Assembly: GCA_017624285.1 (NCBI GenBank)
Contig: JAGANI010000041.1
Coordinates: 1 to 47,454, forward strand
Source of the DNA: Clostridia bacterium
GTDB taxonomy: Bacteria; Bacillota; Clostridia; Christensenellales; Borkfalkiaceae
Length of the DNA: 47,454 bases
Direction of reading: 5' to 3'
Made by a program: the position numbers and the translations under genes
Shown: positions 3,634 through 41,109 of the stretch, in pieces
How positions within the stretch are numbered: the stretch's first letter is position 1
Layout: the number at the start of each line of letters is the position of its first letter
The notes under the pieces: model-generated
Seen by the model: the letters and a program-made list of their open reading frames with translations, nothing else
What the model was told of the DNA's origin: nothing
Database searches by the model: none

Positions 3634-4407
3634 ATGCACGAAGTTTTAAATAAAAAAGGCTTTATATGCGATATGGACGGCGTTATCTATCACGGCAACA
3701 AAGTTTTGGACGGTGTTAAAGATTTTGTTAACTGGATGATCGCAAACAATAAAAAGTTCGTCTTTTTAACCAACAGTCCCGAAAAAACCCCGCACGAGCT
3801 TTCTATGAAGCTGGCGCGTATGGGTTTAGAAGTTTCTGCCGATCATTTTTATACCAGCGCTATGGCTACGGCAGAATTTTTGCATAGCCAAGCCCCCGGT
3901 TGTACGGCGTACGTTATTGGTGAAGCCGCTTTAACCAAGGCTATGTATGATAAACATATTTATATGAACGACGTCAACCCCGATTACGTCGTTTTAGGTG
4001 AAACTAGAACTTACAGTTTTGAAAAGATTGAAAAGGCAATCGCTCTCGTAAACAAGGGCGCAAAACTTATCGGCGCAAATCCAGATACCGTTGGCGTTAC
4101 CGAAACCGGTATTATGCCTGCAACTGGCGCGTTAATTTCCCCGATAGAAATCGCTACCGGTAAAAAGGCGTATTTCGTTGGTAAGCCCAATCCGTTAATG
4201 CTACGTCACGGTATTAGGCTTTTAGATTGCCGTAGTTCTGAAATTGCTTTTATCGGCGATAGGATGGATACTGATATTATCGCTGGGATAGAGTCTAACG
4301 TTGATACTGTTTTAGTTTTAAGCGGGGTTACCGCTAAGGAAGATATTCAATCTTTTCCGTATAGACCTAAATACGTATTAAATGGCGTTGGCGACTTGTT
4401 AAAATAG
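3634..4407 (+). CDS. NagD-type (HAD IIA) sugar-phosphate/nitrophenyl phosphatase
   Basis: 257 residues, the usual length for the NagD/AraL group. HAD motif I is D13-M-D15-G (ICDMDGVIYHG). Motif II is FLTNSPEKT, motif III uses the Lys of VGKPNP, and motif IV is FIGDRMDTDI. A C2-type cap lies between motifs II and III, typical of HAD subclass IIA. Such enzymes hydrolyse small phosphate esters (nucleotides, sugar phosphates) in the cytoplasm; the exact substrate cannot be told. ATAGGAGAT just upstream is the ribosome binding site. The gene sits alone between two terminators. Confidence 0.85.
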   Translation: MHEVLNKKGFICDMDGVIYHGNKVLDGVKDFVNWMIANNKKFVFLTNSPEKTPHELSMKLARMGLEVSADHFYTSAMATAEFLHSQAPGCTAYVIGEAALTKAMYDKHIYMNDVNPDYVVLGETRTYSFEKIEKAIALVNKGAKLIGANPDTVGVTETGIMPATGALISPIEIATGKKAYFVGKPNPLMLRHGIRLLDCRSSEIAFIGDRMDTDIIAGIESNVDTVLVLSGVTAKEDIQSFPYRPKYVLNGVGDLLK

Positions 4408-38910: not shown

Positions 38911-38985
38911 AGGGGTGTCGCCAAGCGGTAAGGCCACGGACTCTGACTCCGTTATTCGTTGGTTCGAATCCAGCCACCCCTGCCA
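38911..38985 (+). tRNA. trnQ: tRNA-Gln (anticodon CUG)
   Basis: The acceptor stem AGGGGTG (38911-38917) pairs with CACCCCT (38975-38981). The D stem is GCC/GGC. The anticodon stem ACGGA/TCCGT surrounds the loop CTCTGAC, with CTG at positions 34-36. A five-base variable loop is followed by the T arm GTTGG-TTCGAAT-CCAGC. Discriminator G and an encoded CCA (38983-38985) complete it. The fold shows no mismatches except G-U pairs. It decodes CAG and is the substrate of GlnRS, encoded at 20585. Confidence 0.96.
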
Positions 38986-39028
38986 AACAAAAGCACCTAT
39001 CAAAAGGTGCTTTTTTTGTGTGGCAGGG
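38978..39028 (+). repeat. Long inverted repeat joining the tRNA-Gln 3' end and its terminator
   Basis: The left arm is CCCTGCCA (38978-38985, including tRNA CCA), then A-ACAAAA-GCACCT to 38998. The right arm is AGGTGC (39005-39010), a T-run with GTG, and TGGCAGGG (39021-39028). One mismatch and a three-base bulge interrupt it. The core is the terminator. Confidence 0.8.
38990..39017 (+). terminator. Terminator of tRNA-Gln
   Basis: AAAGCACCT (38990-38998), six-base loop, AGGTGCTTT (39005-39013), T7 (39011-39017). Confidence 0.9.
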
Positions 39029-39174
39029 ATGACTGTTTTGTATGAGAACCAAGGTTCGGCGTTTACGTCCTGGCGTAAGCCAGCATCCAGCCGCCTAGAT
39101 TACTTGTTTTTATATCTTGTGTTTATGTTAAATGTATGTTATAATTTTTATATAATCTATTTTTGGTGATATTT

Positions 39175-41058
39175 ATGGGTAATAAAGACGAAAAAAAGTA
39201 TTTAATAGATAACCCTGCCTTAATGGCTGAATGGAATTGGGAAAAGAATAACAATTTGGGTTTAGACCCAAAAAAGTTAACTTGTGGTAGTGGTAGAAAA
39301 GCGTGGTGGAAGTGTAGCAAAGATGGATACGAATGGGATGCTATAATAGCCGCTAGAAACAAAGGAACAGGATGCCCTGTTTGTGCTGGAAAAAAAGTCC
39401 TTGTAGGTATTAACGATTTAGCAACAGTGAACCCACAACTTGCCAAAGAATGGAATTATGAGAAAAACGGCAATTCAAAGCCAGAAGTCGTTACTGCTGG
39501 TAGTGGTAAAAAAGTTTGGTGGAGATGTAGTAAAGGTCACGAATGGCAGTCTACAATAGCCCATAGGAATAATGGTCGTGGCTGTCCTGTTTGTAGTTTA
39601 GATAAAACAACTTCTTTACCAGAATATGCTATTTTATATTATCTTGAAAAAAATGGCTTAAAAGCAATTCATTTATATAAAGAAAAAGGGTACGAGTTAG
39701 ATATATATATTCCGTCAAAAAAAATTGCTATTGAGTATGATGGTAATCTTTGGCATAAAAATAAAGCAAAAAAAGATTTAGATAAAAACTTAAATTGTAA
39801 AAGAGATGGCATACAACTTTATCGTATAAGAGAAGGTTTGCCTGTATTAAACGATACGTCAATAGATTTTGTTATTGATAAAAACCAAAAAGAACTTTCT
39901 AACGTTATCAAAAAAATTCTATCTATAATACTTGAAACTAACGTAGACGTTGATTTAAAAAGAGATGCAATAGAAATAGAAAATTTACGTGAATATAGCG
40001 AGAAAGCCAATTCACTTTTAGTGCTTAACCCAGAACTTGCCAAAGAATGGAATTACGAGAAAAACGGCAATTTAAAACCAGAAAACTTTTTACCAAATAG
40101 TAATAAAAAAGTTTGGTGGAGATGTAGCGAGAATCATGAATGGGAAGAAACGATAATCAATAGGAACAATGGGGATGGCTGTCCATATTGTTCTGGGCAT
40201 AAAGTCCTTGCAGGTTTTAACGATTTAGCCACGGTTAACCCTAAACTTGCCAAAGAATGGAATTATGAGAAGAATGGCAATTCAAAGCCAGAAGGCGTTA
40301 CTGCAAATAGCAACAAAAAAGTTTGGTGGAGATGTAGTAAAGGTCACGAATGGCAGTCTACAGTAGCCAATAGGAATAATGGTCGTGGTTGTCCTGTTTG
40401 CGCAGGAAAAAAAGTCCTTGTTGGTGTTAATGATTTAGCAACAGTTAATCCAGAACTTGCTAAAGAGTGGAACTATGATAAAAATAGTAATTCAAAACCA
40501 GAAGGTTTTATTGCTGGTAGTGGAAAAAAGGTTTGGTGGAAATGTAGTAAAGGCCATGAATGGCAGGCAACTATTATAAAAAGAAACAACGGTACAGGTT
40601 GTCCTGTTTGTGCTGGGAAAAAAGTCCTTGTAGGGGTTAACGATTTAGCCACAGTTAACCCTAAACTTGCCAAGGAATGGAATTATGAGAAGAACGGCAA
40701 TTCAAAGCCAGAAGGCGTTGCTGCAAATAGCAACAAAAAAGTTTGGTGGAGATGTAGCAAAGATGGATACGAATGGGATGCTATAATAGCCGATAGAAAC
40801 AAAGGAACAGGATGTCCTGTGTGTGCAGGGCGAAAAGTCGTTGTTGGCGTTAATGATTTAGTCACAGTTAACCCAAAACTTGCCAAAGAGTGGAACTATG
40901 AGAAAAACGACACCAACCCAGAAGATTTTACTGCTGGTAGTGGTAAAAAAGTATGGTGGAAGTGTAGCAAAGGTCACGAGTGGAAAACTTCAATCAACAG
41001 TAGAAATAGTGGACATGGTTGCCCTGTTTGTGCAAAACAAAAAACAACAAAACAGTAA
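39175..41058 (+). CDS. Seven-repeat zinc-ribbon protein with an inserted PD-(D/E)XK-like nuclease domain
   Basis: 627 residues. Seven units of about 70 residues start at residues 13, 86, 285, 355, 425, 495 and 566. Each reads NPxLAKEWNYEKN ... KKVWWRCSKGHEW ... RNNGxGCPVC, the treble-clef 'probable zinc-ribbon' (DUF4379-type) module. Between units 2 and 3, residues 145-255 form a nuclease-like domain: E150 (SLPE), D176 (YELDIYIP), E187-Y-D189 (AIEYDG) and H194, as in Vsr/DUF559-like endonucleases. GGTGA precedes ATG 39175. Frequent GGA codons, rare in its neighbours, and the tRNA neighbour suggest transfer. Members have been linked to mobile DNA and defence only by context; the role is unproven. 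Confidence 0.8.
   Translation: MGNKDEKKYLIDNPALMAEWNWEKNNNLGLDPKKLTCGSGRKAWWKCSKDGYEWDAIIAARNKGTGCPVCAGKKVLVGINDLATVNPQLAKEWNYEKNGNSKPEVVTAGSGKKVWWRCSKGHEWQSTIAHRNNGRGCPVCSLDKTTSLPEYAILYYLEKNGLKAIHLYKEKGYELDIYIPSKKIAIEYDGNLWHKNKAKKDLDKNLNCKRDGIQLYRIREGLPVLNDTSIDFVIDKNQKELSNVIKKILSIILETNVDVDLKRDAIEIENLREYSEKANSLLVLNPELAKEWNYEKNGNLKPENFLPNSNKKVWWRCSENHEWEETIINRNNGDGCPYCSGHKVLAGFNDLATVNPKLAKEWNYEKNGNSKPEGVTANSNKKVWWRCSKGHEWQSTVANRNNGRGCPVCAGKKVLVGVNDLATVNPELAKEWNYDKNSNSKPEGFIAGSGKKVWWKCSKGHEWQATIIKRNNGTGCPVCAGKKVLVGVNDLATVNPKLAKEWNYEKNGNSKPEGVAANSNKKVWWRCSKDGYEWDAIIADRNKGTGCPVCAGRKVVVGVNDLVTVNPKLAKEWNYEKNDTNPEDFTAGSGKKVWWKCSKGHEWKTSINSRNSGHGCPVCAKQKTTKQ
39211..41049 (+). repeat. Tandem 210-219 bp repeats encoding the zinc-ribbon units
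   Basis: Units begin at 39211, 39430, 40027, 40237, 40447, 40657 and 40870. Units 3 to 6 are exactly 210 bp apart; unit 6 is 213 bp. The nuclease insert occupies about 39604-40026. Sequence identity is high at the DNA level between units 4, 5 and 6. Confidence 0.88.
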
Positions 41059-41070
41059 TTTTTACAAAAT

Positions 41071-41100
41071 AAAAAAGACCCTTTTTTGGTGGTCTTTTTT
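41071..41100. terminator. Bidirectional terminator between the repeat gene and the DUF4091 gene
   Basis: AAAAAAGACC (41071-41080) and GGTCTTTTTT (41091-41100), 10 bp, serving two convergent genes. Confidence 0.9.
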
Positions 41101-41109
41101 ATTTTGTAG

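What the first reader, a model, noticed from the sequence alone, without database searches (positions are those of the whole stretch)
39175..41058. Zinc-ribbon array with an inserted nuclease beside a tRNA gene
Seven treble-clef-like modules flank a domain with E150, D176, E187, D189 and H194 in the order of Vsr/DUF559-like endonucleases. The modular array looks like a nucleic-acid reader with a cutting domain placed after the second module. The tRNA-Gln neighbour and different codon use suggest an acquired gene. It may be a single-gene defence or selfish nuclease. This is the best candidate in the window for an undescribed system.
Basis: partly seen in the sequence, partly recalled or inferred. 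Interest (0 to 1): 0.66.

Follow-up and report, generated by a model that had tools for sequence, protein, structure and literature searches.

The report
tRNA-hopping zinc-array nuclease gene
The gene encodes a probable DNA-cutting enzyme whose cutting part is built into a string of seven zinc-binding modules; close relatives of the gene hop between bacterial genomes by landing just behind many different tRNA genes, on small elements that can also carry known anti-virus restriction enzymes, which makes it a likely but unproven defence or selfish nuclease.

Summary
ORF 39175-41058 (627 aa) has seven DUF4379 treble-clef modules (2+5) around a nuclease domain. E150, D176, E187 and H194 are invariant in 51 relatives, D189 nearly so, and a confident model (pLDDT 92) matches the EDxHD homing endonuclease I-Bth0305I and Vsr. 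The domain combination is not new: phage-intron homing endonucleases with CapR/DUF4379-like arrays and a Vsr-like domain were published in 2025.

New here is the setting. Of 81 bacterial genes, 26 start within 600 bp 3' of a tRNA or tmRNA gene, always on the same strand, at many isoacceptors; none has a tRNA within 3 kb downstream. None of 127 viral array or nuclease genes lies near a tRNA. One 2.5-kb element, 99.9% identical, sits behind tRNA-Tyr in one genome and tRNA-Leu in another, starting exactly after CCA. Its joined ends resemble a serine-recombinase attP. Same-ended elements carry EcoRI or an MTase/specificity pair; a serine-recombinase trio abuts a matching end.

Best reading: a Vsr/EDxHD-type nuclease carried as cargo on tRNA-3'-end cassettes, probably defensive; homing/selfish is the main rival. 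The window copy's own element ends are unresolved. No target or activity is known.

The parts
38911..38985 (+). tRNA-Gln(CTG), the upstream neighbour; its 3' end (T-arm to CCA, ~38959-38985) is the presumed landing site
   Evidence: ARAGORN; relatives of the gene lie 3' of many tRNA/tmRNA genes
39021..39035 (-). inverted copy of the tRNA-Gln 3' end (TGGCAGGGATGACTG), directly after the tRNA terminator
   Evidence: score 11, p 0.0025 in 400 dinucleotide shuffles; the same tRNA in three relatives shows none
39085..39095 (+). degenerate direct copy of the tRNA-Gln 3' end; weak
   Evidence: score 9, p 0.0125; clear direct copies occur after four other tRNAs of this genome (Thr, Glu, Glu, Asn)
39175..41058 (+). 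gene for the 627-aa treble-clef-array nuclease
39211..39384 (+). DUF4379 module 1 (residues 13-70)
39430..39594 (+). DUF4379 module 2 (residues 86-140)
   Evidence: 90% DNA identity to module 4
39607..39939 (+). Vsr/EDxHD-type nuclease domain (residues ~145-255; E150, D176, E187, D189, H194)
   Evidence: alignment; model; fold matches; PDB profile hit to 3R3P
40027..40191 (+). DUF4379 module 3 (residues 285-339)
40237..40401 (+). DUF4379 module 4 (residues 355-409)
40447..40611 (+). DUF4379 module 5 (residues 425-479)
40657..40824 (+). DUF4379 module 6 (residues 495-550)
40870..41031 (+). DUF4379 module 7 (residues 566-619)
41064..41107 (.). palindrome with T/A runs between the gene and the converging GH123 gene, probably a bidirectional terminator; no right element end recognised
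   Evidence: sequence read directly

Best explanation
The protein is a Vsr/EDxHD-type DNA endonuclease inserted in an array of DUF4379 treble clefs that probably binds nucleic acid and gives it a long, rare target. In its bacterial clade the gene travels as cargo on small, mostly recombinase-less cassettes that integrate at the 3' CCA end of tRNA and tmRNA genes, moved in trans by large serine recombinases. Its most likely use is to cut incoming phage or plasmid DNA. Shown computationally: the domains and fold; the invariant active-site residues; scattered presence; tRNA-3' linkage in many relatives; one element with exact ends at two different tRNAs, with an empty-site match; restriction genes on elements with the same ends and a serine-recombinase trio against a matching right end. 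Inferred: DNA as substrate, the array as reader, trans-mobilisation, and the defence role. For the window copy itself, cassette membership rests on its clade, its place behind tRNA-Gln and weak tRNA-end copies; its element ends were not found.
For: Fold and active site. Linkage: 29 tRNA/tmRNA genes at 0-600 bp upstream, none within 3 kb downstream, in 81 loci; 23 of the 72 loci with at least 600 bp upstream, all same strand, about 15 tRNA kinds. A tRNA-3'-end motif scan without ARAGORN finds 28/66 upstream same strand, 2/66 upstream opposite strand, 4/66 downstream on both strands. Mobility: a 2518-bp block at 99.9% identity behind tRNA-Tyr (L136) and tRNA-Leu (L137), left edge exactly after CCA; in L341 the same tRNA-Tyr CCA runs straight into GAGAGAACAAAAA, like the right flank of the element. 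Tandem RE|LE junction in L160/L314. Similar left ends behind tRNA-Trp, tmRNA, Ser, Ala, Met and Arg. Same-ended elements: EcoRI (E 2.5e-139) and N6-MTase + specificity subunit; serine recombinase directly inside the right end in L314 and L325. tRNA kind is unclustered on the nuclease tree (32 changes, shuffled mean 33.1). Own genome: DNA MTases behind tRNA-Glu.
Against: No activity, target or phage protection is known. There is no methylase beside it, so self-protection is unexplained. PADLOC has no model for it. Restriction cargo was seen in only a few same-ended elements, found in genomes chosen because they carry the nuclease. The serine-recombinase trio was seen next to matching right ends but not as a complete element with both ends. 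47 of 81 genes had no tRNA found within 1 kb, partly through tandem elements or an intervening partner gene (7 more had too little upstream sequence). The window copy's tRNA-end copies are weak.
Confidence: 0.45

Rival explanations
1. A selfish homing endonuclease: it cuts a rare site in genomes that lack it and is copied in by repair; the tRNA cassette is a vehicle or a by-product.
For: Closest catalytic fold I-Bth0305I is a homing endonuclease; PHROGs and BFVD relatives are named homing endonuclease; related proteins sit in phage group I/II introns (PMC12350094); several copies in single viral contigs; no methylase partner.
Against: Bacterial copies sit inside elements with recombinase-like ends, with closely spaced partner genes, and same-ended elements carry non-homing genes; homing into one allele does not explain landing at many tRNA kinds.
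Confidence: 0.3
2. The array nuclease is itself the mobility or targeting factor of the cassette: it recognises the T-arm/CCA end of tRNA genes and the T-arm-like motifs inside the element ends.
For: Linkage to tRNA 3' ends across several unrelated element-end sequences; T-arm-like motifs within both ends of the L136-type element; no integrase gene beside most copies.
Against: Elements with the same ends lack the array nuclease (L312, L319); the joined ends form an attP-like dyad and a serine-recombinase trio lies directly inside a matching right end; none of 127 viral array or nuclease genes is near a tRNA.
Confidence: 0.12
3. The array binds RNA, and the protein acts on tRNA or other RNA rather than on DNA.
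For: Solved DUF4379 domains are in kinetoplastid mitoribosome proteins; the gene lies next to tRNA genes.
Against: The catalytic domain matches DNA endonucleases; phage relatives without tRNA neighbours share the array; the tRNA link is explained by integration.
Confidence: 0.07
4. An ordinary chromosomal gene that happens to lie beside a tRNA gene.
For: Overall GC equals that of the window.
Against: Patchy: hits in 12 of 61 genomes and no full-length match in the one same-genus genome; tRNA linkage far above expectation (Poisson P about 1e-24 for an assumed density of 0.03 tRNA/kb); different contexts in nearly every relative.
Confidence: 0.03

Closest known systems
CapR/DUF4379-like + EDxHD/Vsr-like homing endonucleases of phage group I and II introns (Nucleic Acids Res 2025, PMC12350094)
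   Same: Same two kinds of domain: a repeated ~60-aa zinc-type module and a Vsr/EDxHD-like nuclease
   Different: There 3-5 modules precede a C-terminal nuclease in phage introns; here about 5-13 modules flank a mid-array nuclease in bacterial chromosomes, often behind tRNA genes
I-Bth0305I, EDxHD homing endonuclease (PDB 3R3P)
   Same: Catalytic domain fold (VIA Z 8.9; profile E 0.0014)
   Different: No DUF4379 array in the solved domain; a phage-type intron homing endonuclease; only ~20% identity
E. coli Vsr (PDB 1CW0, 1VSR)
   Same: Nuclease fold (Z 8.5-8.8)
   Different: Very short patch repair mismatch nickase; no array; function not implied
ssrA genomic islands of Dehalococcoides (PMC3146451) and SCC elements
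   Same: Serine recombinases, tandem islands bounded by repeats of the RNA gene's 3' end, some islands without an integration module
   Different: There one target (tmRNA) and larger islands; here many tRNA kinds and small cassettes (~2.5-4.5 kb), some same-ended ones with restriction-type cargo

Membership tests
DUF4379 (PF14311) | Pfam match above the curated cut-off | tested here: met
   473 bits against cut-off 24.5, seven stretches
EDxHD/Vsr nuclease fold | Fold of I-Bth0305I/Vsr | tested here: met
   profile hit
EDxHD/Vsr nuclease fold | Conserved acidic/His active-site set (E, D, E-x-D, H) | tested here: met
   E150, D176, E187, H194 invariant and D189 nearly so in 51 sequences; not superposed residue by residue on 3R3P
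Homing endonuclease | Gene copied into a cognate allele by cleavage at the insertion site | not testable with these tools
   needs an experiment
Homing endonuclease | Location in an intron or intein, or as a free-standing gene at a fixed conserved gene | tested here: inconclusive
   bacterial copies lie in many contexts, with repeated landing behind tRNA/tmRNA genes
Serine-recombinase cassette (SCC/ssrA-island-like) | Exact element ends at an RNA gene 3' end and an empty site | tested here: inconclusive
   met for the L136-type element; not shown for the window copy, whose right end was not found
Serine-recombinase cassette (SCC/ssrA-island-like) | Serine recombinase on an element with the same ends | tested here: inconclusive
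   recombinase directly inside the matching right end in L314/L325; left end of that element not seen
Restriction-modification | Cognate methyltransferase next to the nuclease | tested here: not met
   none beside the window gene; first neighbours of 81 loci show only scattered methyltransferase-domain hits
Known anti-phage system (PADLOC) | Match to a PADLOC model | tested here: not met
   best E 0.63

The most novel reading that the evidence does not exclude
The array nuclease is a tRNA-gene-targeting factor: its modules read the T-arm/CCA end that all tRNA and tmRNA genes share, and it licenses or drives insertion of small cargo cassettes there, a new role for a homing-type nuclease. Same-ended cassettes without the gene would then be moved in trans.
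Probability: 0.1. Interest if true: 0.85.

Novelty: new variant of a known kind. Interest (0 to 1): 0.5.

Why it matters
It links a large, barely studied nuclease family, known from phage introns, to a bacterial gene-trafficking route: small cassettes that land exactly behind tRNA and tmRNA genes, bring their own terminator, and can carry restriction genes. If the defence reading is right, it would be a methylase-free, long-site restriction enzyme with an evolvable modular reader. The cassette ends also give a cheap way to find further unknown cargo: read what lies directly behind tRNA CCA ends in rumen Clostridia.

Tried and rejected
Idea that the gene is the mobility gene: weakened when same-ended elements without it turned up, with a serine-recombinase trio inside a matching right end. 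'Terminal inverted repeats of a transposon': reread as the two half-sites of an attP-like dyad, since the tandem RE|LE junction is near-palindromic. Integrase beside the gene: one Phage_integrase hit among 68 downstream neighbours, none among the 25 listed upstream families. GH123 neighbour as synteny anchor: not conserved. Module-by-module base code: fast columns (such as 3, 6, 14, 34-35, 42, 44-45, 48, 50 of a 55-column module) are suggestive, but nothing ties them to bases. Recent wholesale array homogenisation: the nearest module lies in the same protein for only 71 of 605 modules, although window modules 2 and 4 are 90% identical in DNA. Papers on tRNA-end cassettes with these nucleases: none found in the held library. 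The original papers on I-Bth0305I and the EDxHD family are not held.

Full report
What is there. The ORF at 39175-41058 encodes 627 residues. Pfam finds seven DUF4379 modules (E 2.3e-145) and a weak match to a restriction-type nuclease at residues 152-220. Two modules precede the nuclease and five follow it. All DUF4379 matches found in this incomplete genome lie in this gene. An alignment of 51 sequences keeps S147, E150, D176, E187, G190, H194 and K204 invariant, and D189 nearly so. AlphaFold2 on residues 70-350 reaches mean pLDDT 92. The nuclease part matches the catalytic domain of the homing endonuclease I-Bth0305I and E. coli Vsr (Foldseek; VIA Z 8.5-8.9), and a sequence profile finds I-Bth0305I in the PDB at E 0.0014. 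Z values near 8 can mean only a common arrangement, so the sequence hit, the fold hit and the conserved residues should be read together. The modules match DUF4379 domains of kinetoplastid mitoribosome proteins, so RNA binding cannot be excluded from the fold.

Who else has it. Among 61 genomes searched, the window's own included, 12 have a hit; the one same-genus genome has only a short piece at a contig end. A scan of 84,980 species genomes confirmed 399 stretches encoding relatives, and the best 80 were kept, mostly from rumen and gut Clostridia. In these the nuclease almost always lies inside the array, with about 5 to 13 modules. Viral relatives more often have the nuclease elsewhere or have only modules, and some contigs carry several copies. 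A 2025 paper describes phage intron-encoded homing endonucleases with CapR/DUF4379-like repeats and an EDxHD/Vsr-like domain, called a large unrecognised outgroup (PMC12350094). The protein type is therefore known; this arrangement and setting are a variant.

The tRNA link. In 81 bacterial loci, 29 tRNA or tmRNA genes lie 0-600 bp upstream of the gene and none within 3 kb downstream. All near ones are on the gene's strand and cover about 15 kinds: Pro, Ser, Leu, Gln, Trp, Asn, Tyr, Glu, Val and tmRNA. None of 127 viral array or nuclease genes is near a tRNA. A plain motif search for a T-loop followed by CCA, independent of the tRNA finder, gives 28 of 66 upstream on the same strand against 2 of 66 on the opposite strand and 4 of 66 downstream on both strands. 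On a tree of the nuclease domains the tRNA kind is not clustered (32 changes; shuffled mean 33.1), so the gene moves between tRNA genes. That tree has few columns and many open forks.

Element ends. Loci L136 and L137, from two genomes, share a 2518-bp block at 99.9% identity. In L136 it begins exactly after CCA of tRNA-Tyr, in L137 after a duplicated tRNA-Leu 3' end. It ends about 596 bp after the nuclease stop codon, where a terminator-like sequence resumes. In a relative the same tRNA-Tyr CCA runs directly into GAGAGAACAAAAA, matching the start of the right flank of L136 (GAGTAAACAAAAA). The element carries its own terminator-like hairpin at the left end and a second gene (DUF2513). Left and right ends are inverted versions of about 20 bp; where two elements stand in tandem (L160, L314) the joined ends read as a near-perfect dyad, as expected of a serine-recombinase attP. 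That reading is mine. Similar left ends abut tRNA-Trp, tmRNA, Ser, Ala, Met and Arg genes in other genomes.

Cargo. Elements with these ends also carry an EcoRI homologue (L319) and an N6 methylase with a specificity subunit (L312). A C5 methylase lies some 3 kb from a left end in L324, but no right end was found there. A trio of large serine recombinases lies directly inside a matching right end in L314/L338, and one such recombinase in L325. Partner genes next to the array nuclease are diverse: about ten small families and many singletons, often less than 50 bp away. First neighbours are otherwise mostly ordinary chromosomal genes. In the window's own genome a split DNA methylase system lies behind tRNA-Glu, and a type III methylase and Res gene lie further behind tRNA-Asn with an unrelated gene between.

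The window copy. The gene sits 189 bp behind tRNA-Gln. The spacer holds an inverted copy of the tRNA 3' end (p 0.0025) and a weak direct copy (p 0.0125); the tRNA-Gln genes of three relatives show neither. Four other tRNAs of this genome have strong direct copies of their own 3' ends 139-176 bp downstream, so such units are common here. The right end of the window's element was not identified; the converging GH123 gene ends 52 bp away. Its cassette membership is thus likely but not shown.

Interpretation. The protein very probably is a nuclease with a nucleic-acid-binding array. That the gene is cassette cargo is well supported for the L136 type and inferred for the window. Defence is inferred from companions; homing is inferred from ancestry. 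I put defence at about 0.45 and homing/selfish at 0.3.

Noticed in passing
L319:6736-7572 (+): A full-length EcoRI homologue (PF02963, E 2.5e-139) inside an element with the same ends behind tRNA-Ser(gga), with no EcoRI methylase recognised beside it.
   Followed up: partly
L100, 3' of tRNA-Ser(gga) 4275-4365: Tandem ~230-bp non-coding units, each ending in a copy of the tRNA-Ser 3' end and holding an inverted T-arm copy, before the nuclease gene: remnants or MITE-like cassettes.
   Followed up: partly
L262, L263, L257, L265 (own genome: tRNA-Glu ttc, tRNA-Glu ctc, tRNA-Thr, tRNA-Asn): Short units with a direct copy of the tRNA's own 3' end 139-176 bp downstream (and an inverted copy after the two tRNA-Glu genes), without a nuclease gene.
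   Followed up: partly
L333:1566-5862 (-), own genome C68: Split N6/N4 DNA methylase genes plus a 517-aa protein of unknown family behind tRNA-Glu(ttc): a candidate restriction system on another tRNA cassette.
   Followed up: partly
L336:3-3289 (-), own genome C1: Type III methylase in two ORFs and a Res-like gene, behind tRNA-Asn with a cellulase-like gene in between.
   Followed up: no
L321:3791-5053 (-): A 421-aa protein with the same nuclease domain at its C-terminus but no DUF4379 modules, in an element with the same ends behind tRNA-Ala; no Pfam or PADLOC match.
   Followed up: partly
L313:3902-4579 (-); also L140, L142, L154, L160 upstream ORFs: A recurrent 222-229 aa partner directly before the array nuclease, with a possible D...(E/D)xK-like motif (CDFVD..GEKFDAK, my reading); no Pfam or PADLOC match.
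   Followed up: no
L268 / L334 (own genome tRNA-Arg ccg, C54): The sequence after CCA (CTATGGGTCTATAAGTATTTTGCTTATAGAC) resembles the left end shared by L103 and L105, followed by an HTH gene cut by the contig end: probably another element type in this genome.
   Followed up: partly
G000:C32:299-2074 (L332): The only large serine recombinase found in the window's genome; no tRNA detected within the 13.5 kb read around it.
   Followed up: no
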